Assembly (NCBI RefSeq): GCF_000831645.3
Contig: NZ_CP012559.1
Coordinates: 434,001-498,000, forward strand
DNA: 64,000 nucleotides
Direction: 5' to 3'
Origin: Companilactobacillus heilongjiangensis
Lineage (GTDB): Bacteria; Bacillota; Bacilli; Lactobacillales; Lactobacillaceae
In this document: positions 2,276 to 60,838 of the stretch, piece after piece
How positions within the stretch are numbered: position 1 is the stretch's first letter
Layout of the letters: each line of letters starts with the position of its first letter
The notes under the pieces: model-generated
What the model was told of the DNA's origin: nothing
The model's database searches: none
What the model saw: only the letters and a program-made list of their open reading frames with translations
Program-made: the position numbers and the translations under genes

Positions 2276-2322
2276 TGCCGCCAGAGGCTGGCAGTAATAT
2301 AGTTCTGCAAGCTTTCGGCTAA
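2276..2322. repeat. Solo outer-stem remnant of the dispersed cloverleaf repeat
   Basis: About 47 bp that resemble the two outer arms of the second repeat subfamily (compare 43725-43902 and 55357-55548: left arm starting GCCGCC, right arm ending TTTCGGCTA) brought together without the three internal hairpins. It looks like a deletion derivative. The rest of 2323-2450 holds nothing I recognise. Confidence 0.5.
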
Positions 2323-2450
2323 TGTATTTTTATGTAAAAGGGAAACGTTATGGTAATTAATATTTGCCAGTTTATTTTCAACCATCTACTGATTTGGTGT
2401 AGTTGTTTAAATCATTCAGAGTATTAGTGGATTAGTTTGTATTAAAAATC

Positions 2451-2635
2451 AATTAGTTGGAAGAGCTGAGAATATTCACCGGCTGTGGTTGTGGTGTTAG
2501 AGCTTTAGCTCTTACACCACCGGGCGAGTTTGGAGACTTGCCGAACTTGCAAGGCTTCAAACCGAGGCTCGAGACCGTACTTTGGCTCGGACCGGTCCGC
2601 ATAGCAGGTGAATATTCTCAGCTCTGGAGACGGCA
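2451..2635 (+). repeat. Dispersed cloverleaf repeat, copy A
   Basis: Outer arms 2462-2480 and 2607-2625 are perfectly complementary over 19 bp. Inside are three hairpins: GTGGTGT...ACACCAC with an inner AGAGC...GCTCT stem, a TTTGGAG...CTTCAAA stem, and a CCGAG...CTCGG stem containing GCTCGAGACC. No transposase or plausible coding content is present; a 63-codon open frame across it is a by-product of the structure. Flanks are AATTAG at the left and GACGGC at the right, shared with copies at 23770, 39030 and 58663. Confidence 0.9.
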
Positions 2636-2665
2636 AAGCAAACAATAATTTTGGGGGTTAAGATT

Positions 2666-3487
2666 TTGCAAAAACAAGAATTAGCTTATCAAGATACTAA
2701 ATTTAACTTGGATACTTACTGGGTTGATCCGATTGCTGACTTTGGAACGCCAAATAAACGTCCTTTAGCCATCATTTGCCCAGGAGGAGCCTTCAAGTTT
2801 CTAACTGACCGTGAGGCTCAACCGATTGCTTTTAACTTCAATTCATTGGGAATGCATGCGGTAGTCTTGGATTATCAATTAGTTGATGATGACCACAGTG
2901 TCTATCCGTTAGCTTTACAAGAACTAGCTACAACTTTGAATTGGCTAAAGTCTCAAGAAGAAATTCAACATATTGATTTGAGTAAAGTTGTTTTAGTTGG
3001 ATTCTCAGCTGGAAGTCATGTAGTAGCTGACTTTAATTCAATTGTGTTGGATCCGGATCAAAAGGATAAAGTTTTCCCTGATGAATTAACTGTTACGCCA
3101 GCAGCCAATGTTCTCTGCTATCCCGTGATTGATATGACCATTGGTTGGCCGAAAGATGAGGACTGGGCGATGAAGATTGCTCCCGATATTTATTATTGGC
3201 AGGCTCAGGAACACTTAACCAAGCATGGAAAGCCAACATTTATTTGGCAGACTGTGACCGATGCAACGGTACCCGTCATGAATTCAATTTTGTACGCTCA
3301 GAAGATGGATATGTTGGGTATTCCTTATGAAATGCATCTTTTTGGTTCCGGAGCCCACGGTTTGGCACTCGGCAACTATGTAACTCAAAACCCCGGTAAT
3401 GAGGCTAATTTGAATGCATATGATACCAAATGGTGGGAACTATGCGTTAACTGGCTCAAATTACAGGAGATTATACCTAATCGTTAA
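2666..3487 (+). CDS. Alpha/beta hydrolase, probable esterase (acetyl-esterase-like)
   Basis: Cytoplasmic alpha/beta-hydrolase of about 273 residues with no signal peptide. Near the N-terminus CPGGAF matches the HGG-type oxyanion turn; GFSAGS is the nucleophile elbow with catalytic Ser; the acid is probably the Asp in VTDATVP and the base the His in GSGAHG. The fold resembles lactobacillar acetyl-esterase/feruloyl-esterase-like proteins, so a carboxylester substrate is likely but unknown. Start: I prefer TTG at 2666, which has GGGGG 8 bases upstream; an in-frame TTG at 2651 has no ribosome site. A cloverleaf repeat ends 30 bases upstream. The stop codon overlaps that of the convergent gene. 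Confidence 0.8.
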   Translation: MQKQELAYQDTKFNLDTYWVDPIADFGTPNKRPLAIICPGGAFKFLTDREAQPIAFNFNSLGMHAVVLDYQLVDDDHSVYPLALQELATTLNWLKSQEEIQHIDLSKVVLVGFSAGSHVVADFNSIVLDPDQKDKVFPDELTVTPAANVLCYPVIDMTIGWPKDEDWAMKIAPDIYYWQAQEHLTKHGKPTFIWQTVTDATVPVMNSILYAQKMDMLGIPYEMHLFGSGAHGLALGNYVTQNPGNEANLNAYDTKWWELCVNWLKLQEIIPNR

Positions 3488-4149
3488 ATCGTAAATATGT
3501 TAAAAGATAAGACCATGTAGATGATGCCCGTTGCAATTGCAATGTAGGGGATAAATCTAAATGATCTTTTTTTATTGAATAAAAAGCTAATAATACAAAA
3601 AAGGCAAGCTATCATGAGAATCCATAAGGTCATCTTTAAACCTAATATCAGACTGAGGATTGCTAGAATTTCAATGTCGCCTAAGCCAAAGGCATATTTT
3701 CGACTTAGCAACAATAGAATAAGGTAGGTCAGCAGGGCGTTCAAAATGTGCAATGGTGTGAGAAATAGTGTTGGGAATATTATCAAATAGGTTGCAGGGT
3801 AGATGTATCCGTAGTAGGCATCAGTGAATGCTAAGACGACTAAACCTAGAAATAATGTCAGGTAAATAAAGTCGCCGAAATGGATCATACTCAAAAATAT
3901 TATGCCACCGATAAATTCCCAAAATGGATGCCAAAATTCAATTTGATTTTTACAGCTCAAGCACTTACCATTGATTATGAAATAACCCATAATTGGGATA
4001 ATTTCGTACCATCGTAAGATCCTACCGCAGTAATCACAATGTGAACGGCGCGTGACGTCGATTTGCGGATAATCATGTGCAATTACTTTTAGAAAGGAGA
4101 TAATGCAAGCTCCAAGTATGAAAATGGTAAAGTATAGAAAGTATTTCAT
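3484..4149 (-). CDS. comC: Prepilin peptidase (A24 family aspartic protease/methylase)
   Basis: Integral membrane enzyme that cleaves and N-methylates type IV-like prepilins, in lactobacilli those of the ComG competence pseudopilus. Seen: an N-terminal domain with two CxxC pairs (CDYC and CLSC) that normally binds zinc, the first active Asp in FTDAYYGYIYP, and the second in GLGDIEIL, the GxGD signature. About six hydrophobic segments; 221 residues is normal length. Good ribosome site GAGGTGA before the ATG. It stands alone, between rpoC and the str operon, with no comG genes in view. Convergent with the hydrolase: both genes end on the same TTAA at 3484-3487. Confidence 0.88.
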   Translation of the reverse strand: MKYFLYFTIFILGACIISFLKVIAHDYPQIDVTRRSHCDYCGRILRWYEIIPIMGYFIINGKCLSCKNQIEFWHPFWEFIGGIIFLSMIHFGDFIYLTLFLGLVVLAFTDAYYGYIYPATYLIIFPTLFLTPLHILNALLTYLILLLLSRKYAFGLGDIEILAILSLILGLKMTLWILMIACLFCIISFLFNKKRSFRFIPYIAIATGIIYMVLSFNIFTI

Positions 4150-4207
4150 TTATATCACCTCAATAGAAATTACGGGGTCTTGTGGATAACTTTTTAAAAA
4201 TGTTGCA

Positions 4208-4236
4208 TTGACATGGCTTTTTTAAGATGGTATTCT
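4208..4236 (+). promoter_or_regulatory. Sigma-A promoter of the str operon
   Basis: TTGACA at 4208-4213, 17-base spacer, TATTCT at 4231-4236, about 145 bases before rpsL. The consensus -35 and exact spacing fit a strong housekeeping promoter. Confidence 0.85.
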
Positions 4237-4309
4237 AGTAGACGTGCTTTTATTGGCAGCAATATTAGTTTGTTTATTAAATATAAAGCTCATAACGTAC
4301 GCCACTCAT

Positions 4310-4341
4310 GTGGTTTATTATTTTACAAAATTATGAACCAC
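4310..4341 (+). promoter_or_regulatory. Leader hairpin before rpsL
   Basis: GTGGTT (4310-4315) pairs with AACCAC (4336-4341), and the AT-rich inside can pair further. It lies in the untranslated leader of rpsL-rpsG-fusA. An autogenous site for S7 or S12 is possible by analogy with other str operons, but no known binding motif was recognised. Confidence 0.4.
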
Positions 4342-4380
4342 CTGGATGTGTGTACTTAAAATTTTTAGGAGGAACTTTGA

Positions 4381-4794
4381 ATGCCTACAATTAATCAATT
4401 AGTTCGCAAAGGCCGTAAGTCACAAACTTCTAAGTCCGATGCACCTGCATTGAACTACGGCTACAATAGTATGAAGAAAGTTGCCACAAAGAACCCAGCC
4501 CCACAAAAACGTGGTGTTGCAACTCGTGTCGGAACAATGACACCTAAGAAACCTAACTCAGCCCTACGTAAGTATGCCCGTGTTAGATTATCAAACCTTA
4601 TTGAAGTAACAGCTTATATCCCTGGTATTGGCCACAACTTACAAGAGCACAGTGTTGTCCTTGTCCGTGGTGGACGTGTAAAGGATCTACCTGGTGTTCG
4701 TTATCACGTTGTCCGTGGTGCCTTAGATACTGCCGGTGTTGATGGCCGTATGCAAAGCCGTTCAAAATATGGTGCTAAGAGACCTAAGAAATAA
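4381..4794 (+). CDS. rpsL: 30S ribosomal protein S12
   Basis: Small-subunit protein at the decoding centre that checks codon-anticodon pairing. 137 residues, usual for Firmicutes. The conserved loops [11 protein letters not shown] and [13 protein letters not shown] both keep lysine at the positions where streptomycin-resistance changes arise, so a streptomycin-sensitive form is expected. First gene of rpsL-rpsG-fusA; a strong AGGAGG sits 7 bases before the ATG. Confidence 0.98.
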
Positions 4795-4841
4795 CATAAA
4801 GCAATTATTCTAGAAATAATGTAATAACGGAGGAATTTAAT

Positions 4842-5309
4842 ATGCGTAAAGGTAGAGCTCCAAAACGCGATGTTTTGCCAGATCCAATGTACAACTCAAA
4901 GCTAGTAACTCGTTTGATTAACCACTTGATGTATGATGGTAAAAGAGGTACAGCTTCATCAATTCTATATCGTTCATTCGATATTATTAAAGAAAAAACA
5001 GGTAACGAACCATTGGACGTGTTTGAAGAAGCAATGAACAATGTTATGCCTGTTCTTGAAGTTAAGGCTCGCCGTATCGGTGGTTCTAACTATCAAATCC
5101 CTATCGAAGTTCGTCCTGACCGTCGTACTACTTTAGGACTTCGTTGGATCACAAGCTATGCTCGTCTACGTGGTGAACATACAATGGACCAACGTCTTGC
5201 AAATGAAATTATGGACGCAGCTAACAATACTGGTGCTGCTGTTAAGAAACGTGAAGATACACACAAGATGGCCGATGCTAACCGTGCATTCGCTCACTAT
5301 CGCTGGTAG
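4842..5309 (+). CDS. rpsG: 30S ribosomal protein S7
   Basis: Primary 16S rRNA-binding protein that nucleates the head of the 30S subunit and lines the exit site. 155 residues, one short of the common 156. The N-terminal MRKGRAPKR and the arginine-rich [15 protein letters not shown] region are typical. It follows rpsL by 47 bases with its own GGAGGA site and is co-transcribed with fusA. In other bacteria S7 is the autogenous repressor of this operon. Confidence 0.98.
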
Positions 5310-5355
5310 GATCTAGTTTTTAAACTAGTTAATTTGAGAGGAGAAACAATTTTTC

Positions 5356-7452
5356 ATGGCTAATAAACGTGAATTTCCACTAGAAGAAACCAGAAATATT
5401 GGTATCATGGCCCATATCGATGCCGGTAAAACTACAACTACTGAACGTATCTTGTACTATACTGGTAAAATCCATAAAATTGGTGAAACACATGATGGTG
5501 CTTCACAAATGGACTGGATGGCTCAAGAACAAGAACGTGGTATTACTATTACATCAGCTGCTACAACTGCTGAATGGAAAGGTAACCGTATTAACATCAT
5601 CGATACACCAGGACACGTTGACTTCACAATCGAAGTTGAACGTTCACTACGTGTGCTAGATGGTGCTATCACAGTTCTTGATGCTCAATCTGGTGTTGAA
5701 CCACAAACTGAAAATGTTTGGCGTCAAGCTTCAACATACGGTGTTCCACGTATTGTTTTTGTTAACAAGATGGATAAAATCGGTGCTGACTTCGACTACT
5801 CAGTTGAAACACTTCACGAAAGACTTCAAGCTAATGCGCATGCTGTTCAAATGCCTATTGGTGCCGAAGACAAATTCGAAGGTGTTATCGACTTGATCGA
5901 TATGAAAGCCGACCTTTATGATGAAGATGAATTAGGTACAAAATGGGATACTGTTGATGTTCCTGAAGAATATCGTGCCACAGCTGAAAAGAAACGTTCA
6001 GAGTTGATTGAAGCTGTTGCCGATGTCGATGATGACATCATGGACAAGTATCTTGAAGGCGAAGAAATCAGTAATGATGAAATTCGTGCAGCTATTCGTA
6101 AGGCTACAATCAATTTGAAGTTCTTCCCAGTTCTTGCAGGTTCTGCCTTCAAGAACAAGGGTGTTCAAATGTTGATGGATGCGGTTGTTGATTACCTACC
6201 ATCACCACTTGATGTACGTCCTTATAAAGCTACTGATCCTAAAGATGATTCAGAAGTTGAACTTATGGCTGACGATAGCAAACCATTTGCTGGTCTAGCA
6301 TTTAAGATTGCTACTGACCCATTCGTTGGACGTCTAACATACATTCGTGTATATAGAGGTTCTCTAGAATCAGGTTCTTATGTCTTGAACTCAACAAAAG
6401 ACAAACGTGAACGTGTTGGTCGTTTGCTACAAATGCATTCTAACCACCGTAAGGAAATCCCAGAAGTATTCTCAGGTGATATCGCTGCTGTTATCGGTTT
6501 GAAGAACACTACTACTGGTGATTCTCTAACAGATCCTTCAGATCCATTGGTTCTTGAATCATTGGATATTCCAGATCCAGTTATTCAAGTTTCTATCGAA
6601 CCTAACTCAAAGGAAGATAGAGATAAGATGGATATTGCTATCCAAAAGCTTTCTGAAGAAGATCCTACTTTCCAAGCTGAAACAAATCCTGAAACTGGTG
6701 AAACACTTATTGCCGGAATGGGTGAATTACACTTGGATATCATGGTCGACCGTATGAAACGTGAATTCAACGTTGCATGTAAGGTTGGTGAACCTCAAGT
6801 TGCTTACCGTGAAACATTTACACAACAAACAAGTGCTCAAGGTAAGTTCGTTCGTCAATCTGGTGGTAAAGGTCAATATGGTGATGTATGGGTTGAATTT
6901 ACACCTAATGAAGAGGGTAAAGGCTTCGAATTCGAAGACGCTATCGTCGGTGGTGTTGTTCCACGTGAATACATTCCATCAGTTGAACAAGGTTTGAAGG
7001 AAGCTATGGAAAACGGTGTTCTTGCCGGTTATCCATTAATCGATGTTAAGGCTAAGTTATATGATGGTTCATATCACGAAGTCGATTCATCAGAAGCTGC
7101 CTTTAAGATTGCCGCTTCAATGTCACTACGTAACGCATCTAAGACTGCTGGTGCCGTAATTCTTGAACCTATTATGAAGGTTGAAATTGTTACACCAGAA
7201 GAATATCTTGGAGATGTTATGGGACAAGTTACTGCTCGTCGTGGACGTGTTGAAGGAATGGAAGCTCGTGGTAATGCACAACTTATCAATTCTTTCGTAC
7301 CGCTAGCAGAAATGTTCGGTTACGCTACAACACTTCGTTCAGCAACTCAAGGTCGTGGTACATTTACAATGACAATGGATCACTACGAAAAGGTTCCTAA
7401 GTCAATTCAAGCTGAAATTATTAAGAAAAACGGTGGTAACCCTGAAGACTAG
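5356..7452 (+). CDS. fusA: Translation elongation factor G
   Basis: GTPase that drives translocation of tRNA and mRNA and, with ribosome recycling factor, splits ribosomes. 698 residues, normal. G1 AHIDAGKTT near residue 19, switch II region [10 protein letters not shown]4 NKMD, followed by domains II-V; domain IV carries the usual basic loop. Closest to the housekeeping EF-G rather than tetracycline-protection proteins. Last gene of the str operon: an intrinsic terminator follows, and tuf is not adjacent. Confidence 0.98.
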
Positions 7453-7473
7453 TCTTTAGGATGAAACCAAATT

Positions 7474-7506
7474 AAAGAGAAGATCATTTTGATCTTCTCT
7501 TTTTTT
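7474..7506 (+). terminator. Rho-independent terminator of the str operon
   Basis: 12-bp stem AAAGAGAAGATC with its complement around a 5-base loop, running into a T tract; 22 bases after fusA. Confidence 0.95.
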
Positions 7507-7583
7507 GCGTTCTTTTGTATATATTCTACTGCCAATCACTGGTGACCCAAATAAGGCATTTTAAAAATGATTTTCGGTTAAAT

Positions 7584-7622
7584 AAAAAAGACATCAAATC
7601 AACCGGTTTTGATTTGATGCCT
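7584..7622 (-). terminator. Terminator of the minus-strand GNAT gene
   Basis: ATCAAATCAA pairs with TTGATTTGAT around CCGGTT; read on the minus strand the stem is followed by CTTTTTTA. It lies 32 bases beyond the GNAT stop codon. Confidence 0.85.
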
Positions 7623-7653
7623 TCATATACACTGATTTTATATTTTTTAGTAA

Positions 7654-8061
7654 CTAGGATTCTTTATAAAAGGCAACGGTACTTCCTTTGTCGCCAGATA
7701 CAAAACCAAATTTTTCATAGAAATGTCTAACATTGGGTGCTTCTTCTGTTAACAGCACCTTTTGTCGAATATTTTTATATTTGGTTAACGTCATGGTCAT
7801 TAGCTTGGTTCCGATGTTTTTATTTTGAAAGTCAGGATGAACCAAAATATCTTGAATATATAATATTGTGTATCCATCACCAACTACTCTAATTAAACCA
7901 ACCAACTGATCATCATTCCAAGCAGTTATTACTAACAATGAATTATTGATTGCTTTCTGTAATGTTTCTAGGTCGTGGGTATAAGCAAACCATTTAACAC
8001 TTGAATATAGTTGTTTTAAATCCTTTGTATCAATTTGGATGTTCACTTTGTAATCTATCAT
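7654..8061 (-). CDS. GNAT-family N-acetyltransferase
   Basis: Small cytoplasmic acetyltransferase, 135 residues, one GNAT domain. Seen: LVGLIRVVGDG (beta4), YIQDILVHPDFQNKNIGTKLM, which is motif A with the acetyl-CoA pyrophosphate loop (Q-N-x-x-I-G), and the C-terminal NVRHFYEKFGFV (motif B). This arrangement is shared with many lactobacillar GNATs of unknown substrate; amine or protein acetylation cannot be told apart. AGGAGG precedes the ATG. Single-gene transcript with its own terminator. Confidence 0.85.
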   Translation of the reverse strand: MIDYKVNIQIDTKDLKQLYSSVKWFAYTHDLETLQKAINNSLLVITAWNDDQLVGLIRVVGDGYTILYIQDILVHPDFQNKNIGTKLMTMTLTKYKNIRQKVLLTEEAPNVRHFYEKFGFVSGDKGSTVAFYKES

Positions 8062-8220
8062 TATTAATCCTCCTAATTATTTTTTATAATTAAGAGTTAA
8101 TCTTTAATCTATTATTCATTTTATATTGCTCCCTTAAGTGAAGTACTCAAAGTATACTGCTATAAGTCCATGTGTAAATGGTTTAAATATTGGGATTGAA
8201 CATGAAAGTAGATTAACCCA

Positions 8221-8397
8221 GCCGGAGTAAGCTCAGAAATATAGTATGCAGTGAAGGTTGAGTTAGGACTTTAGTCCTTACTCAACGGACGACTTTGGAG
8301 ACTTGCTGAACTTGCAAGGCTTCAAATCGAGGCGCGAGACCGTACTTTGGCTCGCACCGGTCCTCACAGCAGACTATATTTCTGAGCTTACGGAAGC
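8221..8397 (+). repeat. Dispersed cloverleaf repeat, copy B
   Basis: Outer arms 8227-8245 and 8373-8391 are perfectly complementary over 19 bp but differ in sequence from copy A. Hairpin 1 is GTTGAGT...ACTCAAC with an inner AGGAC...GTCCT stem, in place of the GTGGTGT/ACACCAC and AGAGC/GCTCT pairs of copy A. The middle hairpin and the GAGACCG core are close to copy A. It lies between the starts/ends of two minus-strand genes; the rest of 8062-8220 holds only presumed promoter DNA. Confidence 0.9.
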
Positions 8398-8405
8398 GAA
8401 CATAC

Positions 8406-9611: not shown

Positions 9612-9699
9612 ATCACACCTCCACGTTTTCTTTTAGAGTATAGTTGAAAATCAGGTTTTAAGAAAGCGGCAAACAATTAAAAAAAAGTTTGATTTTAAC

Positions 9700-9728
9700 T
9701 TGAAAATGTGGAGTTCACCGTGTAGTAT
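9700..9728 (+). promoter_or_regulatory. Promoter of the S10-spc-alpha operon
   Basis: TTGAAA at 9700-9705, 17-base spacer, TAGTAT at 9723-9728, leaving a leader of about 160 bases before rpsJ. Confidence 0.75.
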
Positions 9729-9734
9729 TATAAG

Positions 9735-9890
9735 AGTGCTTATTTCATATAGAAGTATGTACCAAATTGATATTAAAATAATATCGACGGCTTAGAAGTG
9801 AGAGGTTGCGACACACCCGGCCGCTTTGCCACGGCAGGGCTGTTGGAAATTTTCACGGAGCCGGTCATCTTGAAAGAGATAAAAAGGAGG
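9735..9890 (+). promoter_or_regulatory. Structured leader of the S10 operon
   Basis: Untranslated leader with an imperfect long stem: CCGGC (9817-9821) pairs with GCCGG (9860-9864), and TGCC-AC-GGCA folds inside. In Enterobacteria L4 regulates this operon through its leader, and Firmicute leaders have been proposed; whether this one binds L4 is inference. It ends in the AAGGAGGT ribosome site of rpsJ. Confidence 0.5.
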
Positions 9891-9897
9891 TAACCCC

Positions 9898-10206
9898 ATG
9901 GCAAGTCAAAAGATTCGCATTCGTTTGAAGGCTTATGAACATCGTATTCTAGATCAATCAGCTGACAAAATCGTGGAAACAGCAAAAAGAACTGGAGCTC
10001 AAATTTCAGGTCCAATTCCATTGCCTACAGAACGCTCACTATATACAGTGCTAGCTTCACCACATAAGCACAAGGATTCTAGAGAGCAATTCGAAATGCG
10101 TACACACAAAAGACTTATCGACGTTGTTAACCCAACAAAGAAGACGGTTGATTCACTTATGAAGTTGGATCTACCATCTGGTGTTGACATTGAAATTAAA
10201 TTATAA
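9898..10206 (+). CDS. rpsJ: 30S ribosomal protein S10
   Basis: Small-subunit head protein, also the NusE partner of NusB in transcription antitermination. 102 residues, standard. Typical motifs [24 protein letters not shown] and the C-terminal [12 protein letters not shown]. First gene of the superoperon, with a near-perfect AAGGAGGT site. Confidence 0.98.
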
Positions 10207-10237
10207 TTATTAAAAATAAATTATTGGAGGTGCAAAC

Positions 10238-10873: not shown

Positions 10874-10890
10874 GAAGGAGGAACTGAGTT

Positions 10891-23726: not shown

Positions 23727-23769
23727 GCCCAAATTTTGGTATTATATAACGTATAGTGCTAGTTAAATA

Positions 23770-23954
23770 TGCCGTCTCCAGAGCCGAGAATATTCATCTG
23801 CTGCGCGGAACGGCCCGAGCCAAAGCGCGGTCTCGAACCTCGATTGAAGCCTTACCACAGACCGGTGAGTCTCCAATACGCCCGGTGGTGTAATTGCTAA
23901 AGCAATAACGCCACTTTTGCTGCATATGAATATTCTCGGCTCTTCCAACTAGTT
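23770..23954 (-). repeat. Dispersed cloverleaf repeat, copy C
   Basis: Outer arms 23780-23797 and 23926-23943 are complementary over 18 bp (AGAGCCGAGAATATTCAT type: C-G pair where copy A has T-A). Hairpin 1 inner stem is ATTGC...GCAAT, a compensated change from AGAGC...GCTCT. Opposite orientation to the copy at 24170, 215 bp away. The stretch 23955-24169 between them is AT-rich with nothing recognisable. Confidence 0.9.
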
Positions 23955-24169: not shown

Positions 24170-24350
24170 ACTAGTCGGAAGGACAGAGAATATTAACAGG
24201 CTGTGGGTGTGGCGTTATGGCTTCAGCCATTACACCACTGGGCGAGTTTGAAGACTTGCGGTCTTTGCAAGGCTTCAAACCGAGGTTCGAGACCGCTTTT
24301 TGGCTCGGACCGGTCCGCATAGCAGGTTAATATTCTCTGTCCTGGAGATA
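24170..24350 (+). repeat. Dispersed cloverleaf repeat, copy D
   Basis: Outer arms 24182-24198 and 24326-24342 pair perfectly over 17 bp (GGACAGAGAATATTAAC), again different from copy A but compensated. Hairpin 1 inner stem ATGGC...GCCAT. It ends 34 bases before the ecfA1 start codon, so the ecf promoter must lie within or before the repeat. Confidence 0.9.
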
Positions 24351-24384
24351 ACACATATATACCAAATTTTCAGGGGAGACACTT

Positions 24385-27649: not shown

Positions 27650-27716
27650 GGTATTGTTTGCCCCACGATAGGCCCCGGAAACTTATTGAGTGTCAAACAG
27701 ACGTAGAAACTGGAGG
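27650..27716 (+). promoter_or_regulatory. Probable L13 autoregulatory leader
   Basis: Short leader between the promoter and rplM with GTTTG (27655-27659) able to pair with CAAAC near 27694, and a C/G-rich bulged part (GCCCCACGATAGGCCCCGG). Position and size fit the known Firmicute L13 leader class, in which free L13 limits its own synthesis. Assignment is by context. Confidence 0.55.
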
Positions 27717-38934: not shown

Positions 38935-39029
38935 GATGTAGATATTCTCATGGATTGTATTTCAGCGTATAAATTGAGTTGGATATAATAAAAGCAATTG
39001 AATACTCTTAAGTTCAATTAATAACGATT

Positions 39030-39230
39030 AATTAGTCGGAAGAGCTGGGAAATAATTGTGTGCAGTGGTAGTGGTATAAGGACGGGATATTATCCCGTCC
39101 TTATACCACCGGGCGTGTTTGGAGACTTGACGAACTGTGTCAAGGCTTCAAACCGAGGTTCGAGACCGCACTTTGGCTCGGACCGTTCCGCACAGCTTGA
39201 GGATATTTCCCAGCTCTGTAGACGGCATAT
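39030..39230 (+). repeat. Dispersed cloverleaf repeat, copy F
   Basis: Outer arms 39041-39054 and 39204-39217 pair over 14 bp (AGAGCTGGGAAATA). Hairpin 1 is the longest of the family: GTGGTATAAGGACGGGAT pairs perfectly over 18 bp around ATT. Middle hairpin TTTGGAGACTTGAC...GTCAAGGCTTCAAA and the GGTTCGAGACCG core are intact. Sequence and left flank (AATAACGATTAATTAGTCGG) are shared with the inverted copy at 60672. Confidence 0.92.
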
Positions 39231-43531: not shown

Positions 43532-43565
43532 ATTTAAAATCCTCATTTCGTTTATATTAAATTAA

Positions 43566-43622
43566 TTCGGTACCAAACTTTATTGCAAAACGAATTATAG
43601 TTCGGTACCGAATTAATTGCAA
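43566..43622 (-). promoter_or_regulatory. Promoter and twin operator of the MarR-ABC operon
   Basis: On the minus strand: TTGCAA (43617-43622), 17-base spacer, TATAAT (43594-43599). A perfect 12-bp palindrome TTCGGTACCGAA (43601-43612) fills the spacer, and a second site TTCGGTACCAAA (43566-43577) lies just downstream of the start point. Placement is that of a repressor that blocks RNA polymerase; autoregulation by the MarR protein is inferred. Confidence 0.8.
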
Positions 43623-43724
43623 GCTTTTTATTTCTGGGGAAGTGAAACTAATTATTTGACATTGATTAATAAAATGAATAATATGTACAGATGGTAAAAA
43701 TTACTATTTAGTTTTATCTGGGGA

Positions 43725-43902
43725 TGCCGCCGAAGGTGGGCAACAATCTCACTTGCTGTGGGACCGGTTCGAGCCAAAGTGCGGTCTCGAACCTTGCTTT
43801 TGAGCCGAAACCCACGTCTCAAAAGTCGTCCCGTGATATAAGGACTTGCGTCCTTACATCACCTTCACGGCTGGTGAATTGTTGCCCACCTTCGGCTAGG
43901 GT
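43725..43902 (-). repeat. Dispersed cloverleaf repeat, copy G
   Basis: Second subfamily. Outer arms 43730-43747 and 43878-43895 pair perfectly over 18 bp (CCGAAGGTGGGCAACAAT). Hairpin 1 is GTGAT-TAAGGAC...GTCCTTA-ATCAC; the middle stem is TTTTGAG...CTCAAAA; the core GGTTCGAGCC/GGTCTCGAACC is kept. Opposite orientation to copy H, 210 bp away. Confidence 0.9.
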
Positions 43903-44050
43903 GTTTGTGCTTATTTTTGGTGTTGGATATTTTGATTAGTATTGTTGATATCTAGATTGTTGGAATCAGCGCGATAGTGAATTTAACCTAATATCTGAAC
44001 ATTGGGTTAGATTATTGGATTTTTATCATGGTTTAAAAATAGAAAAGATA

Positions 44051-44098
44051 AAATTCTTTAGTTATCGATGATCAGATCAATAACTATTTTAAAGAATT
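44051..44098. repeat. AT-rich inverted repeat
   Basis: AATTCTTT...GTTAT pairs with ATAAC...AAAGAATT around a GATC-containing centre, between two cloverleaf repeats. It might act as a weak terminator for nothing obvious; no gene ends here. Confidence 0.35.
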
Positions 44099-44111
44099 AT
44101 CAAATAAAAAA

Positions 44112-44291
44112 TGCATTAGCCTCCGGTTGTCAGTAATGTAAACCGCCGTGCAAGTGGTGTTGAGGCTTTAGCCTTTACTCCACTGACGTATTTTGAGATT
44201 CGCGTACTTTGCGAAGCTCAAAATCGAGGTTCGAGACGCAAGGCTTGAACCGGCCACATGGCAATCTACATTACTGACAACCGGAGGCGGC
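44112..44291 (+). repeat. Dispersed cloverleaf repeat, copy H
   Basis: Outer arms 44120-44140 and 44267-44287 pair perfectly over 21 bp (CCTCCGGTTGTCAGTAATGTA), the longest outer stem seen and unlike any other copy. Hairpin 1 GTGGTGT...ACTCCAC with inner GAGGC...GCCTT; middle stem ATTTTGAG...CTCAAAAT; core GGTTCGAGACG. It ends 27 bases before the alternative S14 gene. Confidence 0.9.
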
Positions 44292-44318
44292 AGTCTATAA
44301 AATAAAGAGGTTATTATA

Positions 44319-52484: not shown

Positions 52485-52488
52485 AATT

Positions 52489-52518: not shown

Positions 52519-52579
52519 TTTGTTGCGACTTACAACTCCGTTATAATTGAGTTAATTCTTTTTGTTTTGGAGGAAAAAT

Positions 52580-53965: not shown

Positions 53966-53966
53966 C

Positions 53967-55352: not shown

Positions 55353-55356
55353 TTGG

Positions 55357-55548
55357 TGGAGCCGCCGAAGGCCGCGAGGACGGAGTCAGCTATGGGGGCC
55401 GGCGAAAGCCTTGTGTCTCACACCTCGCTTTGAAGCCTTGCCAAAGTTCGGCAAGTCTCCAAAGTCGTCCCGTAGAGTAAGAACGGAAAACCACCGTCCT
55501 AACTCTACCTTCACAGCAGTCTCCATCCTCGCAACCTTCGGCTATTGT
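55357..55548 (-). repeat. Dispersed cloverleaf repeat, copy I
   Basis: Second subfamily. Outer arms 55364-55385 and 55521-55542 pair at 19 of 22 positions. Hairpin 1 GTAGAGT...ACTCTAC with inner ACGG...CCGT; middle stem TTTGAAGCCTTGCC...GGCAAGTCTCCAAA. The CTCGAACC core is replaced by TGTCTCACACC, so it is older than the other copies. It starts 5 bases after the frdA stop codon. Confidence 0.88.
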
Positions 55549-55614
55549 GTTGGTTTGAGGCAGCATCGTTGTCTCTTCTAGTATGTTCATGCTTCAATTA
55601 ATTTTATAAATACG

Positions 55615-55651
55615 AAAAAACTAGCAATCGATTATGATTACTAGTTTTTTT
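55615..55651. terminator. Bidirectional terminator
   Basis: AAAAAACTAGcAATC pairs with GATTaCTAGTTTTTT; between the convergent frdA and HAD genes. Confidence 0.9.
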
Positions 55652-55667
55652 GTATAAATTTCAATTG

Positions 55668-56294
55668 TTAAACCAATTTAACTAAATCGGTCGGTTGCTT
55701 TAATAAATAATCAACTTTTGAAAACTCGGGATTATCTTTAGATCCCCAACTAGCTAAAGCAAATTCGACATTAGCGTTGCGTGCGCATTGGAAGTCATAA
55801 ATTGAATCTCCGATATATAACGTTTCGGCTGGGTCAATTTGTAATGTTTCAATTGCTTTGAGGATTGGCTCAGGATTTGGTTTATGGAGTTTTGTTTTTG
55901 AAGCGGTGATGAAAGTGGAAAAGTATTTTTCAATGTCAAAATTATCCAATACTAATTGAAGTTCTTTATTAGTTCTTGAAGTGACTACGCCTAATTTGAT
56001 ATTCTTGTCTTTCAATTGTTGCAACATGGTCGTGATGCCGTCAAAGAGTTCCGAATAGTGAAACATCTTGTGATCGTTTTGTTCCCACAATGTTAGTAAT
56101 TCTTGGCTTTGTTGAGGTCCATTGGAATATTTTTGAACGGCTTTAGTTCCAGGGATTCCCAAGACGTAGAAGAGTTCTTCAGCTGCTGGCTCAATATTTA
56201 GTGTATCTTTTAAAGTCTTTTGCCATGATTTTATAATAGTTTTCTCAGTATCAATAAGTGTTCCATCGACGTCAAATAAAATTGTTTTCGACAT
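55668..56294 (-). CDS. HAD-IA family phosphatase (phosphoglycolate phosphatase/PpaX-like)
   Basis: 208 residues. Motif I FDVDGTLID with nucleophile Asp8 and acid Asp10, an alpha-helical cap (about 15-85), motif II VTSRT, Lys in KPNPEPIL, motif IV YIGDSIYDF. Phosphoglycolate or pyrophosphate phosphatase is the usual label, but sugar phosphates are as likely. Starts 13 bases after a DeoR regulator on the same strand, as a second DeoR-HAD pair in the window. Confidence 0.88.
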   Translation of the reverse strand: MSKTILFDVDGTLIDTEKTIIKSWQKTLKDTLNIEPAAEELFYVLGIPGTKAVQKYSNGPQQSQELLTLWEQNDHKMFHYSELFDGITTMLQQLKDKNIKLGVVTSRTNKELQLVLDNFDIEKYFSTFITASKTKLHKPNPEPILKAIETLQIDPAETLYIGDSIYDFQCARNANVEFALASWGSKDNPEFSKVDYLLKQPTDLVKLV

Positions 56295-56307
56295 AAATAA
56301 TTTCTCC

Positions 56308-57060
56308 TTAGATGTAAATCATTTGCGTTTTCGATTTTAATAAACGATTCTCCAACTTTTGTGGCAAGTGGCTGTTGGTGATGATGTAATCAATCTGATC
56401 GAGGTTGAGGACTTTAAAGTTGTGTTTAACATTAACCTTGCTGCTATCCAAGAGTAAAACTAATTTTTTTGCTTGTTTACGAATCTTGGCTTTGTAATCG
56501 ATATCGTCGTCATAAGCGTAATAAATACCGTCCTCGTCAATACCCACGCTGCTTAGAAAAGCGTAGTCGAAAGTATAGTTTTCCAAACCCAGACATGGTC
56601 TAGTTCCGGTAACACAGCGTTTTTCGGCATCCAGATTGCCACCGAGAATTCGTGCCTGACAAGGTGAGTGGCGGATCAGTTGGTCGGCAATATCGAGCGA
56701 ATTAGTGACGGCGAAGAGGTTTTGCTTGGTTAGATATTGGGGCATGAATTCAACCGTTGTCGAAATGTCCAAGTAAATCTGAGTTGCCTGATTAGCATAA
56801 ACGGCAGCCTTTTTGGCTAACTCACGCTTGGTATTGACGTAATCATCGCTACGTTCTAAATAACCATCTAGTTTTTTGAAAGTATTGGGCATACTGATGC
56901 CACCGTAACTGCGTTCAACCAGGTTGCTGTCAGTTAATTTGACAATGTCGCGACGGGCAGTGTCACGTGAAGAATTAGTTAAATCAATGATTTCCTTGAG
57001 GGTTAAAGTTTGTTTTTCCTGTAAAGTTTTTAAAATTAAATCTAAGCGCTCTTTTTGCAT
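56308..57060 (-). CDS. DeoR-family transcriptional regulator
   Basis: 250 residues from the ATG at 57060; a TTG at 57066 is in frame. Winged helix with TLKEIIDLTNSSRDTARRDIVKLTDSNLVERSYGG, then the DeoR sensor with YLDISTTVEFMP, ARILGGNLD and FLSSVGI. It precedes a HAD phosphatase gene. The inverted AATACTTA motif upstream is the same 8-mer as at the other DeoR gene (34196-34243). Confidence 0.9.
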   Translation of the reverse strand: MQKERLDLILKTLQEKQTLTLKEIIDLTNSSRDTARRDIVKLTDSNLVERSYGGISMPNTFKKLDGYLERSDDYVNTKRELAKKAAVYANQATQIYLDISTTVEFMPQYLTKQNLFAVTNSLDIADQLIRHSPCQARILGGNLDAEKRCVTGTRPCLGLENYTFDYAFLSSVGIDEDGIYYAYDDDIDYKAKIRKQAKKLVLLLDSSKVNVKHNFKVLNLDQIDYIITNSHLPQKLENRLLKSKTQMIYI

Positions 57061-57086
57061 AAGCAATCACCACTTTTAAGCTATAA

Positions 57087-57118
57087 TAAGTATTTAACTT
57101 GATAGTAACTTATTTTCG
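57087..57118 (-). promoter_or_regulatory. Probable operator of the second DeoR gene
   Basis: TAAGTATT at 57087-57094 is the reverse complement of AATACTTA; a related AACTTATT follows at about 57108. It lies 27 bases before the start codon of the minus-strand DeoR gene. Confidence 0.4.
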
Positions 57119-57137
57119 CTTAAAATACAATTAACAA

Positions 57138-57164
57138 TAAAAAAAGACCCGAAGGCCTTTTTCA
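57138..57164 (-). terminator. Terminator of the EIIBC gene
   Basis: On the minus strand AAAGGCC-TTCG-GGTCTTT with a UUCG loop and seven T; 8 bases after the EIIBC stop, so DeoR and HAD have a separate promoter. Confidence 0.9.
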
Positions 57165-57171
57165 TAATTTA

Positions 57172-58599
57172 TTATGCTTCTTGATCAGATGATTCCATCT
57201 TGTCATTGAATCCGAAGAGGAATGTTAAAACGAAGGCGACTCCAAAGGCAATCAGGTGTGAGATGACATAAGCAGTAAAGTTGCCGTCAATACCAGTTTT
57301 AGGATTAATAAAGGATGGGAAACCAATCAAACTTCCGGTAAATCCGTAGATAACTAAGTGCATACCACCAGCTACAGCACCACCGACAGCATTACCAATC
57401 ATGACCATATAGAAGACACGTTTGTATTTCAAAAGAATTCCGTATAGTGAAGGTTCGGCGATTCCACAGAAAGCTGAAACGCCAGCCGAATAACCTAATG
57501 CTTCAAGGCTCTTCTTCTTAGTTTTGATAGCTACAGCAAGTACACCACCAGCGATACCAACGGCTGTAATTGATGTTAAAGCACAGATAACACTTTGACC
57601 AGTAACGGCTAAATCATTGATAACGATAGGGATGAGTGGCCAGTGTAAGCCGAAGACTACCAAGATAGGATAGAAAGCACCATAGATAGCGCCACCGATA
57701 ATTCCGTTGAATGAAAGTAGAGCTGAAATGCCGTTAGCTAAACCTTTACTTAGAACGGTGATAACTGGAGCGACTAATAGTAATAGAACAAATGATAAAA
57801 TAATAATTTCGAGAATTGGAACGAAGATTCCTTGGACCATTTCAGGGATAGCTTTCTTAAGATATTTTTCAACGTATTTACCTAACCAGGCAGCAACGAT
57901 GATTGGAAAAACTGATCCGGAGTAGTTCATAACTTTGACCGCAAAGCCACTCCATAAGCCGATTTCAGGTACTTTGGCTGAAGCAATACCAATAATATTT
58001 GGGTGGATCAGAAACGCACCGATAATAGCTAGGGCAATTGGATCAGAACCTAGTTTCTTGGCTGCAGTGAAGCCAAGAATAACAGGTAGAAAGTAGAAAA
58101 TTGTGTCAGCCATGGTGTTGATGAGCATAAAAATACCAGATTTGTCACTCAAGACATTGGCACTGACTAGACCGGCGAGAATACCTTTGGTAATACCAGA
58201 ACCAGCAAGAACACCGATAATTGGCATCATTGAGGCCGTCAGGACACCAATAAACTCGTCATAACCGTGTTTAAATTTAGCTCCAAAACCTTGAGGAACA
58301 ACTTTTTCAGTCGTCACTGTTTCGGCAGCCGCTTGACCATCTTCAGTCGCCAAACGAGGCAATTGTTTCAAAATGGCATCGAAGACATCCGTAACTTTAT
58401 TACCAATAACGATTTGATATTGACCTTGAGCTTGCATAACTTTGATAACAACACCCATTTTTTCAAGCGCAGCCCCGTCGGCTTTACTTTCATCCTTGAG
58501 AGTAAAACGAAGTCGAGTCATACAGTGAATTAGTGTGTTGATGTTTTTATCACCACCGACATCGGCAATGATTTGTTTCGCATCATTTGAGTAGTCCAT
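57172..58599 (-). CDS. PTS glucoside/sucrose-family permease, EIIBC
   Basis: 475 residues. EIIB with phospho-Cys in LIHCMTRLRF (about residue 27), EIIC with about ten helices (105-465) and GIAEPSLYG. No EIIA domain. It resembles trehalose/sucrose/beta-glucoside permeases, but the sugar is unknown. It stands alone on its transcript; the nearest genes are a DeoR-HAD pair downstream and an esterase upstream, with a cloverleaf repeat just before its promoter region. Confidence 0.9.
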   Translation of the reverse strand: MDYSNDAKQIIADVGGDKNINTLIHCMTRLRFTLKDESKADGAALEKMGVVIKVMQAQGQYQIVIGNKVTDVFDAILKQLPRLATEDGQAAAETVTTEKVVPQGFGAKFKHGYDEFIGVLTASMMPIIGVLAGSGITKGILAGLVSANVLSDKSGIFMLINTMADTIFYFLPVILGFTAAKKLGSDPIALAIIGAFLIHPNIIGIASAKVPEIGLWSGFAVKVMNYSGSVFPIIVAAWLGKYVEKYLKKAIPEMVQGIFVPILEIIILSFVLLLLVAPVITVLSKGLANGISALLSFNGIIGGAIYGAFYPILVVFGLHWPLIPIVINDLAVTGQSVICALTSITAVGIAGGVLAVAIKTKKKSLEALGYSAGVSAFCGIAEPSLYGILLKYKRVFYMVMIGNAVGGAVAGGMHLVIYGFTGSLIGFPSFINPKTGIDGNFTAYVISHLIAFGVAFVLTFLFGFNDKMESSDQEA

Positions 58600-58662
58600 G
58601 ATAGATTCTCCTTAGATAGTTTCTGTTTTTATGTTTTATTCATTACTAATTCAATAGAAATA

Positions 58663-58846
58663 AATTAGTCGGAAGAGCTGAGAGTATTCATCAGCAGCGA
58701 AAGTGGCGTTATGGCTTTAGCCATTACACCACCGGGCGTGTTGGAGACTTTCCGGTTTGTGGAAAGGCTTCAACCGAGGTTCGAGACCGTACTGTGGCTC
58801 GAGCCGTACCGCGCAGCAGATGAATACTCTCAGCTCTGGAGATAGT
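58663..58846 (+). repeat. Dispersed cloverleaf repeat, copy J
   Basis: Outer arms 58674-58692 and 58819-58837 pair perfectly over 19 bp (AGAGCTGAGAGTATTCATC). Compared with copy A, G replaces A in the left arm and C replaces T in the right arm, a textbook compensated change. Hairpin 1 ATGGC...GCCAT; middle stem has TTTCC...GGAAA in place of CTTGC...GCAAG. Its last bases touch the stop codon of the esterase gene. Confidence 0.92.
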
Positions 58847-59649
58847 TAGCACAATCTTTCTTCTGGAATATAGCCGATTGGTAACCATTCCAAAATGTTC
58901 TCAATAAACTTGTCCCAGTAATACCAATCGTGTTTGCCATTAGTAAATTCAGTGTCAACTGAGATATTTAAAGCCCCTAAATTTTTGATAAATGCTTGAT
59001 TATCTTGATAGAGAAAATCCTGTCGACCGCACCAAGCGTAAAGTTTTGGCATTGGTTCATTCAGAGCTAGTTTTTGCTTAGCCAAATGGATAAGATTTTC
59101 GGGTGAATTGTCGAAATCGTCACGTTGGTTGATAACGCCATTCCAGTATTCCTTACTACGGAAACTTTCGAGAGTTTCACTAGAACCGCTGGGATTGAAG
59201 GCACCGGATAAAGCAGCCGCGTGACTGAAATGATTAGTGGATAAGGCAATTTTGTAAGCACCATAACCACCCATGGAAGCTCCAGCAATGAAGTTCTTCT
59301 CACGTTTTGCTGAGATCTGAGGGAATAGTTCACGGACGATTTTTGGTAATTCAATCGCAATTTCATCATAGTAGTCCATGCCGTAGGTCGTGTTGGAATA
59401 CCAACTAAGGTCGGCGTTTGGCAAAATTATTGCAATTGGCAAATGTTTGACCAATCGTTCCAGACGAGTCTTGCGTAACCAAGAAGTGTTGTCATCACTC
59501 ATACCGTGCAGTAAATAAATTACTGGCAAATCAGTTAGTGTATCTTTAGTCCATTCGGGATTGTCAGCTGTCCTTTGGGGAAGCAAGACATCCATTTGAC
59601 AATCCTTTACTAGAACATTTGAAAAGTAATTAACTTGAATATGTGCCAT
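58846..59649 (-). CDS. Esterase of the tributyrin-esterase/esterase D-like family
   Basis: 267 residues, cytosolic alpha/beta hydrolase. VIYLLHGMSDDNTSW (oxyanion region), nucleophile in GASMGGYG, acid Asp in GRQDFLY and base His in GKHDWYYW. Very similar in layout to lactic-bacterial EstA, which acts on short-chain esters. AAGGAG precedes the ATG. Divergent from an AraC gene with a shared cre-bearing region; the stop codon lies at the edge of a cloverleaf repeat. Confidence 0.88.
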   Translation of the reverse strand: MAHIQVNYFSNVLVKDCQMDVLLPQRTADNPEWTKDTLTDLPVIYLLHGMSDDNTSWLRKTRLERLVKHLPIAIILPNADLSWYSNTTYGMDYYDEIAIELPKIVRELFPQISAKREKNFIAGASMGGYGAYKIALSTNHFSHAAALSGAFNPSGSSETLESFRSKEYWNGVINQRDDFDNSPENLIHLAKQKLALNEPMPKLYAWCGRQDFLYQDNQAFIKNLGALNISVDTEFTNGKHDWYYWDKFIENILEWLPIGYIPEERLC

Positions 59650-59698
59650 TTTTTGCTCCTTAGTAATTATATAAATTGTAGATATTAGTAATATCTCA

Positions 59699-59728
59699 TT
59701 GACAAGCTCTATTGTATACGCTTACAAT
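59699..59728 (+). promoter_or_regulatory. Promoter with cre-like palindrome before AraC
   Basis: TTGACA (59699-59704), 18-base spacer, TACAAT (59723-59728). TGTATACGCTTACA (59713-59726) overlaps the -10 and resembles a CcpA site, with symmetrical TTGTA...TACAA arms. Since esterase and AraC are divergent, both may be under catabolite control. Confidence 0.6.
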
Positions 59729-59798
59729 TATGGTAATAACCTTAAATATGTTCAAACAACTACCATTTGTTGTCTTGAAGCAAAAGGAGTGTTTAATT

Positions 59799-60653
59799 AT
59801 GGCGACACCAATGGAACTGTTAGAATTCGATTATATAAATCCCATTAAGTGTATTTATCATCGTCCAATTGGAAAGAAATTTATTGTCCCACATTGGCAT
59901 GAGGCGATTGAAGTTTGTTACGTTGCTAAAGGAAACCCAGGAACTATATTTATTGAAGATCAGAAATATCAACTAGAGGCTGGGGATGTTTACGTAATTA
60001 ATTCGCGTATGATTCACAGTTTTAATACGTATATTACTGATGATCAGAGAATTATCACATTGTTGATTGATTACAACTGGTTGAGACACTGCTTGCCACA
60101 GACCGTACGGGAAAAGAGTTTTGATTTAATCAAAGGTCCAGTGCGGGATAGTCAAATTCCAGCATTCGGTGAATTGGTTAATTTGATTAATGAGACAAAG
60201 GATCTTCAAACTCAAGATTTGTCAGAAGATAATCATTTACATCAATTGACCACGTCAGTTGAATTGATCAGTATTTTGGTGAAGAATTTTACGCTTGATA
60301 AAGAATTGAAACATGATATTCCGGAAGTGATTTCACAAATAATTGCGGAATTTCATGAACAATATCAGGATGAAATTCAATTATCAGATATGGCAAAAAA
60401 ATATAATTACAGTTATGCTTATTTTTCAAAATTATTCAAAAAATATCTGGGCATATCTCCAAAGAAATATTTGACGCATTTACGGATTCAAAAAGCTGCT
60501 GAGTTGATTGAGAGAACGGATAATAAATTCACAGAAATAGTGGCAGATACTGGCTTTCCAGATGAAAAGAGTTTCTACGCCGCATTTAAAGAACGTTATC
60601 ATCAGACACCTTTGGAGTATCGTCGAAAATTACAATTGGTTCCTAAGGGATAG
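59799..60653 (+). CDS. AraC-family regulator
   Basis: 284 residues from the ATG at 59799, preceded by AAGGAG; a longer frame from 59712 would cover the promoter and is not used. Cupin domain (PHWHEAIEVCYVAKG, LEAGDVYVINSRMIHSF) and two helix-turn-helix motifs (QLSDMAKKYNYSYAYFSKLFKKYLGISPKKY, EIVADTGFPDEKSFYAAFKERYHQTPLEYR). Probably senses a sugar; target genes may be the divergent esterase or the EIIBC beyond it. Confidence 0.9.
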   Translation: MATPMELLEFDYINPIKCIYHRPIGKKFIVPHWHEAIEVCYVAKGNPGTIFIEDQKYQLEAGDVYVINSRMIHSFNTYITDDQRIITLLIDYNWLRHCLPQTVREKSFDLIKGPVRDSQIPAFGELVNLINETKDLQTQDLSEDNHLHQLTTSVELISILVKNFTLDKELKHDIPEVISQIIAEFHEQYQDEIQLSDMAKKYNYSYAYFSKLFKKYLGISPKKYLTHLRIQKAAELIERTDNKFTEIVADTGFPDEKSFYAAFKERYHQTPLEYRRKLQLVPKG

Positions 60654-60671
60654 CATGCAGTGTTATTTGAA

Positions 60672-60838
60672 TATCCCGTCTACAGAGCTGAGAAATATTC
60701 ACTAGCTGTGCGGAACGGTCCGAGCCAAAGAGCGGTCTCGAACCTCGGTTTGAAGCCTTGACACAGTTCGTCAAGTCTCCAAACAATACCACTACCACGG
60801 CACACAAATATTTCCCAGCTCTTCCGACTAATTAATCG
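60672..60838 (-). repeat. Dispersed cloverleaf repeat, copy K (hairpin 1 deleted)
   Basis: Close relative of copy F (39030) in inverted orientation, including the flank TAATTAATCGTTATT. Outer arms 60684-60699 and 60807-60822 pair except for one position. About 40 bp covering most of hairpin 1 are missing: after CTCCAAACA the sequence resumes at ATACCACTACCAC. The remaining hairpins are intact. The rest of 60839-60950 is AT-rich without features. Confidence 0.9.

What the first reader, a model, noticed from the sequence alone, without database searches (positions are those of the whole stretch)
2276..60838. A family of cloverleaf-forming intergenic repeats kept by compensatory change
Seen: eleven long copies and one remnant of a 165-200 bp element in 64 kb, in both orientations, always between genes and absent from the 14-kb ribosomal superoperon. 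Each copy has an outer stem (perfect over 14-21 bp in eight copies) and three internal hairpins. Stems differ between copies yet stay paired inside each: outer arms at 2462/2607, 8227/8373, 24182/24326, 44120/44267; hairpin 1 inner stems AGAGC/GCTCT, AGGAC/GTCCT, ATTGC/GCAAT, ATGGC/GCCAT, ACGG/CCGT. That is strong covariation for a DNA or RNA structure. Inference: either a non-autonomous mobile element recognised by structure, or a transcribed RNA or terminator/processing module. I know of no named lactobacillar family with this shape.
Basis: partly seen in the sequence, partly recalled or inferred. Interest (0 to 1): 0.82.

Follow-up and report, generated by a model that had tools for sequence, protein, structure and literature searches.

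The report
Cloverleaf mobile repeats in Lactobacillaceae
A short gene-less DNA repeat that folds into a conserved cloverleaf has spread to an estimated 600 places between the genes of this lactobacillus, and related repeats occur in several other lactobacillus genera; it looks like a hitch-hiking mobile element whose folded shape is itself preserved, for reasons not yet known.

Summary
A covariance model finds 11 copies in the window, at least 150 in the genome (scoring cap) and 87 in a 400-kb systematic sample, extrapolating to about 600. Relatives occur in 57 of 301 genomes of the family, 8 of 40 genera including this one; all 14 hits among 395 genomes of the order lie in that family. On a structure-blind alignment of 118 copies, 29 column pairs covary beyond a phylogeny-keeping null; 25 are pairs of the predicted fold. 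G·T outnumbers A·C 375:170, so one strand, RNA or single-stranded DNA, carries the structure. Orthologous sites are filled in some species and empty in others. A young subfamily has 16-bp terminal inverted repeats outside the cloverleaf and about 8-bp target duplications. Best reading: a MITE-like non-autonomous mobile element with a structured core. Placement relative to gene strand is 49:49, against a cis leader or terminator. Neighbouring copies are almost always divergent (26 of 28, none convergent); this is unexplained. No transposase, no Rfam family and no published description was found in the searches made.

The parts
2276..2312 (-). remnant of a decayed minus-strand copy (3' arm), divergent partner of the 2455 copy
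   Evidence: read by eye; in G011 the same site holds a full divergent pair (L208)
2455..2635 (+). cloverleaf element, subfamily A
   Evidence: R1 204.9 bits; the gap is 57-195 bp in 16 of 19 relatives compared, 435 bp here
8220..8401 (+). cloverleaf element, subfamily B-like
   Evidence: R1 136.6 bits; gaps of 46, 117 and 120 bp in G011, G023, G034, 344 bp here
23749..23764 (+). terminal-inverted-repeat-like sequence ACGTATAGTGCTAGTT outside the 3' end of the 23770 copy
   Evidence: G000:C1:457749-457764, 1 mismatch
23770..23950 (-). cloverleaf element, left member of a divergent pair
   Evidence: R1 171.5 bits
23951..24172 (.). 222-bp spacer between the divergent members (their 5' sides)
24173..24353 (+). 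cloverleaf element, right member; the rplQ-ecfA gap is 796 bp here and 151-207 bp in 26 of 28 genus loci compared
   Evidence: R1 194.7 bits
32170..32336 (-). decayed cloverleaf element
   Evidence: R1 25.1 bits, E 1e-4
38995..39033 (+). 5' extension shared by the young subfamily
   Evidence: G000:C1:472995-473065; L252
39034..39227 (+). cloverleaf element, young extended subfamily
   Evidence: R1 163.9 bits
43725..43897 (-). cloverleaf element, subfamily B, left member of a divergent pair
   Evidence: R1 113.3 bits
44118..44292 (+). cloverleaf element, subfamily B, right member, 26 bp before the next gene
   Evidence: R1 116.2 bits
55360..55543 (-). cloverleaf element, subfamily B, 7 bp after a convergent gene end
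   Evidence: R1 110.5 bits; gap 27-205 bp in four relatives, 315 bp here
58667..58847 (+). cloverleaf element, subfamily A; gap 11 bp in the one relative comparable (G001), 246 bp here
   Evidence: R1 186.9 bits
60674..60829 (-). cloverleaf element lacking most of hairpin 1, young extended subfamily (5' extension to about 60869)
   Evidence: R1 120.7 bits; (G000:C1:494800-494869)

Best explanation
The repeats are copies of a non-autonomous, MITE-like mobile DNA family. In the young subfamily the full unit is 305-337 bp (153-238 bp when the core is internally deleted): a 16-bp terminal inverted repeat, about 75-105 bp of AT-rich sequence, the cloverleaf core of about 190 nt, a few bases, and the second terminal repeat, flanked by an approximately 8-bp target duplication. 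An enzyme supplied in trans, not identified, would insert it into AT-rich DNA between genes. After insertion the flanks blur while the core stays recognisable. SHOWN: mobility over species time (filled and empty sites), terminal repeats and duplications for the young subfamily, no gene inside, conserved one-strand fold. INFERRED: that older subfamilies moved the same way; that a DDE-type transposase acts in trans; that the core is preserved because it acts as a folded single strand. I think an RNA is likelier than single-stranded DNA, because 8-bp duplications point to double-stranded DNA transposition. The fold would act during propagation, or would make read-through of the insertion harmless to neighbouring genes. 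The divergent-pair rule is also an inference: a second copy lands in the roomy 5' flank of a resident copy, and same-orientation neighbours are later lost by recombination between direct repeats.
For: Copy number and spread. Filled versus empty orthologous sites: rplQ-ecfA gap 796 bp here, 812 in G023, 530 in G011, 519 in G034, versus 151-207 bp in 26 of 28 genus loci; further sites. Target duplications: of 30 extended copies 16 had both ends readable, and 11 of 16 match at 7 or more of 8 positions (offsets up to 3 allowed) versus a mean of 1.6 and a maximum of 5 in 300 shuffles. Unit lengths. Opposite terminal repeats 101-340 bp apart among the 100 places listed (143 matches in all, 75 with the reversed control pattern). 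Plasmid copy in Limosilactobacillus reuteri. Covariation. One-strand bias: 375 G·T versus 170 A·C cells, 41 versus 11 pairs, p 3.6e-5, with no matching bias in unpaired columns. Indifference to gene strand, 49:49.
Against: No transposase-bearing relative was found: no transposase, judged by eye from the first 70 residues, among ORFs of at least 120 codons in 17 stretches chosen around terminal-repeat sites. Only the young subfamily shows clear duplications. A search for 9-bp duplications at the outer ends of 36 divergent pairs found 2 at 8 or more of 9, fewer than the shuffled mean of 4.1. Pairing is kept as well on short terminal branches as on inner ones, which does not look like free decay after insertion and would fit a function at each site. 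The divergent-pair bias (26 of 28) is not a MITE property that I know of (recalled).
Confidence: 0.7

Rival explanations
1. A cis-acting RNA module (leader, attenuator, processing or terminator element) kept at each site for the neighbouring gene.
For: Strong covariation and one-strand bias; some copies lie 15-31 bp before a gene start; pairing kept on short terminal branches.
Against: 49 of 98 copies face a gene start in sense and 49 face the end of an opposing gene; closely related species lack the copy at the same gene; no Rfam family.
Confidence: 0.12
2. A REPIN-like system: inverted doublets moved as single-stranded DNA by a Y1/HUH transposase.
For: Same-gap neighbours are divergent in 26 of 28 cases and convergent in none, with divergent pairs in other genera too; one-strand structure. 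At rplQ-ecfA the outer ends of the pair, read from two species, are flanked by TATTATATA and TAATATATA.
Against: Y1_Tnp is absent from element-rich genomes (G034, G023, G012), and the two Y1 genes here look like ordinary IS200 (judged by eye). Pair members are no more alike than random (0.671 versus 0.668, 21 pairs). Paired copies are no closer to kin than single ones (46 versus 40 copies). IS200/605 transposition makes no target duplication (recalled), yet the young subfamily has one.
Confidence: 0.1
3. The compensatory changes come from DNA repair: one arm templates the other (quasi-palindrome correction), with no selection on the structure.
For: Strong inverted repeats are known substrates (recalled); double changes that keep a pair exceed those that break it in all but one branch class, even on short terminal branches.
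Against: Two mismatches inside hairpin 1 are kept in 27 of 31 and 30 of 31 copies of A1, although correction would remove them. G·T exceeds A·C two to one. Junction residues that are unpaired are conserved in other genera.
Confidence: 0.1
4. An ordinary MITE whose structure is merely the sum of its terminal inverted repeats.
For: Terminal repeats and duplications exist in the young subfamily.
Against: The terminal repeats lie outside the cloverleaf, and internal hairpins covary on their own and are found full-length in three other genera examined.
Confidence: 0.05

Closest known systems
Bacterial MITEs of low-GC Gram-positives, e.g. bcr1 of the Bacillus cereus group (PMC3446304, passages read; other details recalled)
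   Same: Gene-less, dispersed between genes, described as MITE-like; about half or less of all bcr copies were found within transcripts.
   Different: No comparison of sequence with bcr1 was made. About 600 copies here (extrapolated) versus 155-165 for all 18 bcr families together in one strain; a cloverleaf core; divergent-pair rule; spread over genera of one family.
REPINs / REP-RAYT systems (PMC3116915 and PMC3733652, abstract and passages read)
   Same: Extragenic, hairpin-forming, inverted doublets, singles that could be leftovers.
   Different: Core of about 180 nt with internal hairpins; no link to Y1 transposase; doublets not more conserved; target duplications in the young subfamily.
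Structured non-coding RNA families in Rfam 15
   Same: Covarying fold with conserved junctions.
   Different: No family at gathering threshold over the window; in the pieces searched permissively no match to the core came near its family's gathering score.

Membership tests
MITE | short element without a transposase gene | tested here: met
   no called gene overlaps any of 98 copies by more than 40 nt
MITE | terminal inverted repeats | tested here: met
   young subfamily only: ACGCATGGTGCTAGTT / AACTAGCACCACACGT; not looked for systematically in subfamily B
MITE | target site duplication | tested here: met
   young subfamily: 11 of 16 readable (of 30) versus shuffled mean 1.6; no excess at the outer ends of 36 divergent pairs
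MITE | presence/absence at orthologous sites | tested here: met
MITE | ends shared with an autonomous insertion sequence | tested here: inconclusive
   none seen in 17 stretches around terminal-repeat sites; 100 of 143 pattern places were listed
REPIN/RAYT | associated Y1 (RAYT) transposase | tested here: not met
   18 of 36 genus genomes have any Y1_Tnp match; element-rich G034, G023 and G012 have none
REPIN/RAYT | doublet is the conserved replicative unit | tested here: not met
cis-regulatory RNA | consistent orientation relative to the regulated gene | tested here: not met
   49:49
cis-regulatory RNA | transcription | not testable with these tools
   no expression data
Rfam 15 families | score above gathering threshold | tested here: not met
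   (whole window: only the L13 leader, away from the copies); permissive searches on four pieces only

The most novel reading that the evidence does not exclude
The cloverleaf is the active part of a new class of structure-dependent mobile element. Its folded single strand, RNA or DNA, is recognised by the machinery that spreads it, and a resident copy steers the next insertion into inverted orientation at its 5' side, which produces the divergent pairs seen in several genera.
Probability: 0.22. Interest if true: 0.8.

Novelty: new variant of a known kind. Interest (0 to 1): 0.57.

Why it matters
If the extrapolation holds, about 4% of this genome consists of one folded, gene-less element, and matches occur in eight genera. 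That makes it a rich natural covariation data set and a test case for whether a bacterial MITE can be selected for a nucleic-acid structure. It also bears on annotation: copies in front of genes could be mistaken for riboswitch-like leaders.

Tried and rejected
Y1/RAYT mobilisation. Divergent pair as a matched unit: of 28 spacers, BLAST gave 5 local matches between different spacers and 2 within single spacers; partner identity is at the random level; no excess of outer duplications. Only the rplQ-ecfA site, read from two species, fits. Autonomous copy near terminal repeats: none seen in 17 stretches. Phage records: no match. Exact motifs in viral contigs: none. A made-up subfamily-B query found nothing in plasmids; the subfamily-A query found four plasmid records, one L. 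reuteri and three L. paracasei, the latter over 44 bases only. One search failed on a file name. In one search minus-strand loci were not reversed; A1 corrects this. In one search double changes were miscounted; one search corrects this. One search was run as a check and corrected unit lengths in this report. Ten literature searches. Passages were read from four papers; of the others I saw titles and abstract starts only.

Rows dropped before counts: of 123 rows, 36 were left out (reverse-strand echoes of the same copies, one copy cut by the stretch end, and two roughly 42-nt fragments). Of 17 rows, 6 echoes were left out. One low-scoring row (L081 5811, 25.4 bits) was kept. Covariation used 118 of 137 copies after removing those over 90% alike. 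The 137 are copies of at least 165 nt; shorter ones, and hits L188 2778 and L236 1834, were left out.
Full report
OBSERVATION. The window is positions 434001-498000 of a single 2,790,548-bp contig. Its nearest named relatives in the genome collection are Companilactobacillus species; the tool says the genome's own record may be left out of that list, so the species is not established here. Repeat search and folding show the copies as described. A covariance model (R1, 183 positions, 65 pairs) was built from 31 copies. It finds 11 copies in the window, from 25 to 205 bits.

COPY NUMBER. Genome-wide the tool scored 150 of 1866 candidates, and all 150 were matches with E below 1e-32, so 150 is a floor. 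Twenty 20-kb stretches spread over the genome gave 87 copies in 400 kb after dropping 36 of 123 rows. With the window: 98 in 464 kb, 0.21 per kb, about 590 in the genome; the sample alone gives about 607. Both are extrapolations.

STRUCTURE. RNAalifold on A1 predicts 65 pairs, of which 26 have at least one both-side change. For a stricter test I aligned 137 copies from this genome, three relatives in the genus (G011, G023, G034) and three other genera (g15, g20, g38) with MAFFT, without structure. I kept 118 below 90% mutual identity (mean pairwise identity 62%) and compared a G-test score against 40 null alignments that keep the tree and the substitutions per branch, in the manner of R-scape. 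Twenty-nine column pairs pass E<0.05. Twenty-five are pairs of the fold of the consensus, three are one column off, and one (3-176) belongs to the outermost stem. Copies of dispersed repeats may recombine, so the tree-based null is only approximate. Across 67 pairs 90% of cells are paired. Among mismatch classes G·T exceeds A·C by 375 to 170 cells (pairs whose commonest state is one of these excluded), 41 to 11 pairs, p 3.6e-5. In unpaired columns the changes that would make G·T do not exceed those that would make A·C. Hence one strand is the one that folds. Residues such as CGAG and AGACCG are conserved in the other genera too. Two mismatches in hairpin 1 are kept in 27 and 30 of 31 copies. 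Against a simple decay model, pairing is kept as well on short terminal branches as elsewhere: on terminal branches below 0.06, 71.0 of 106.0 pair changes are kept, with double changes 25.3 kept and 1.0 broken (averages over reconstructions).

PLACEMENT. No copy overlaps a called gene by more than 40 nt (98 copies; gene calls by my own simple caller). The 3' end faces the start of a co-oriented gene in 49 copies and the end of an opposing gene in 49, so there is no preference for gene strand. The 3'-side gene is the nearer one in 80 of 94 copies with genes on both sides. For 38 single copies the medians are 58.5 bp on the 3' side and 149 bp on the 5' side, about what an off-centre core in a longer unit would give. 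Of 28 neighbours sharing a gap, 26 are divergent (minus then plus), 1 is ++, 1 is --, none is convergent. Divergent neighbours also appear in other genera; three of those stretches (L181, L182, L192) were chosen because they held such pairs, so they do not count as unselected. Partners are not especially alike (0.671 versus 0.668 expected, 21 pairs), and paired copies are no closer to kin than single ones.

MOBILITY. At rplQ-ecfA the gap is 796 bp here, 812 bp in C. nantensis, 530 bp in C. huachuanensis and 151-207 bp in the other 26 of 28 genus loci; G034 has 519 bp. At the site of the 2455 copy G011 has a full pair and G034 one copy, 16 of the 19 relatives have 57-195 bp, and G012 has 1008 bp that look like an extra gene. 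Further sites behave likewise with fewer relatives comparable, and the 32170 site had none. At the 39034 site G023 keeps what looks like a 3' remnant. Within the genus 24 of 36 genomes have a match and 12 none. A young subfamily (noticed through shared flanks) has inverted ends ACGCATGGTGCTAGTT and AACTAGCACCACACGT outside the core. Of 30 copies examined, 16 had both ends readable, and 11 of those show a duplication matching at 7 or more of 8 positions, versus a shuffled mean of 1.6 and a maximum of 5. The end consensus was drawn from these same copies. Unit length is 305-337 bp in the 8 readable copies with a full core, 296 bp in one without most of hairpin 1, and 153-238 bp in 7 with shortened cores. 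The same ends occur in opposite pairs 101-340 bp apart in the genome (143 matches, 75 for the reversed control pattern, 100 listed). A shortened copy with the 5' extension lies on a Limosilactobacillus reuteri plasmid. At rplQ-ecfA the left flank here and the right flank in C. huachuanensis read TATTATATA and TAATATATA, around a target present once in species without the insertion. I record this as suggestive only, since 36 pairs tested for outer duplications gave no excess (2 versus 4.1 expected).

SPREAD. R1 matches 57 of 301 family genomes in 8 of 40 genera, this one included (at most 8 candidates scored per genome), and 14 of 395 genomes drawn from the order, all 14 in the same family. Stricter filters were used in both, so weak matches are lost. 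Among 46 loci with up to 10-kb flanks around the ecfT gene the model found copies only in four, all Companilactobacillus.

MECHANISM. I commit to a MITE-like, non-autonomous element (0.7). The enzyme is unknown. Y1 transposases do not track the repeat, and 17 stretches around terminal repeats show no transposase ORF of at least 120 codons by eye. That the core acts as an RNA is an inference: 8-bp duplications suggest double-stranded transposition, which leaves no obvious place for a folded DNA strand. Arm-to-arm repair could also create covariation, but the kept mismatches in hairpin 1 and the one-strand bias speak against it. The divergent-pair rule remains unexplained. My best guess is insertion into the long 5' flank plus loss of direct neighbours by recombination.

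KNOWN KINDS. It works like a bacterial MITE, and the young subfamily meets the defining features tested except a known parent insertion sequence. The other subfamilies are attached to it by the shared core only. It fails two REPIN criteria. Rfam 15 has no match to it (sub-threshold matches are weak). My ten literature searches in open PMC papers listed no description of it; subscription papers and ISfinder were not searched.

Noticed in passing
L079:15942-17743, L080:6168-7969; 5' end also seen at L087 near 8114: Group II introns (Rfam RF02001, RF01998, RF00029) sit inside copies of the repeat, interrupting the core; two confirmed by Rfam, a third by its matching 5' end only.
   Followed up: partly
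window 27650-27703: Ribosomal protein L13 leader, the only Rfam hit in the window at gathering threshold. Ordinary.
   Followed up: no
window 43532-44318 and orthologues: An L33-like small gene (rpmG, named by eye) before the next ribosomal gene is present in G001, G018, G023, G034 but not seen here nor in G011, G022, G026, G030; its absence does not track the repeats.
   Followed up: partly
L289:2038-2138 (G000:C1:67737-67837): A 101-bp unit bounded by two exact terminal repeats, too short to hold the full cloverleaf.
   Followed up: no
L079:9818-9921, L082:2039-2142, L089:4542-4645, L081:8783-8890: Internally shortened copies of 104-108 nt that match both ends of the model.
   Followed up: no
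L031, L032: Two near-identical IS200-like Y1 transposase genes in the genome; Y1 presence does not follow repeat number across the genus.
   Followed up: yes
L175 (NZ_CP030091.1:14855-15034): Shortened copy of the repeat on a L. reuteri plasmid, about 120 bp after an IS30-family transposase gene; a streptogramin acetyltransferase gene is annotated about 1.2 kb further round the circle.
   Followed up: no
L080:13799-13988: T-box-like leader just below its gathering score, directly beside a repeat copy.
   Followed up: no
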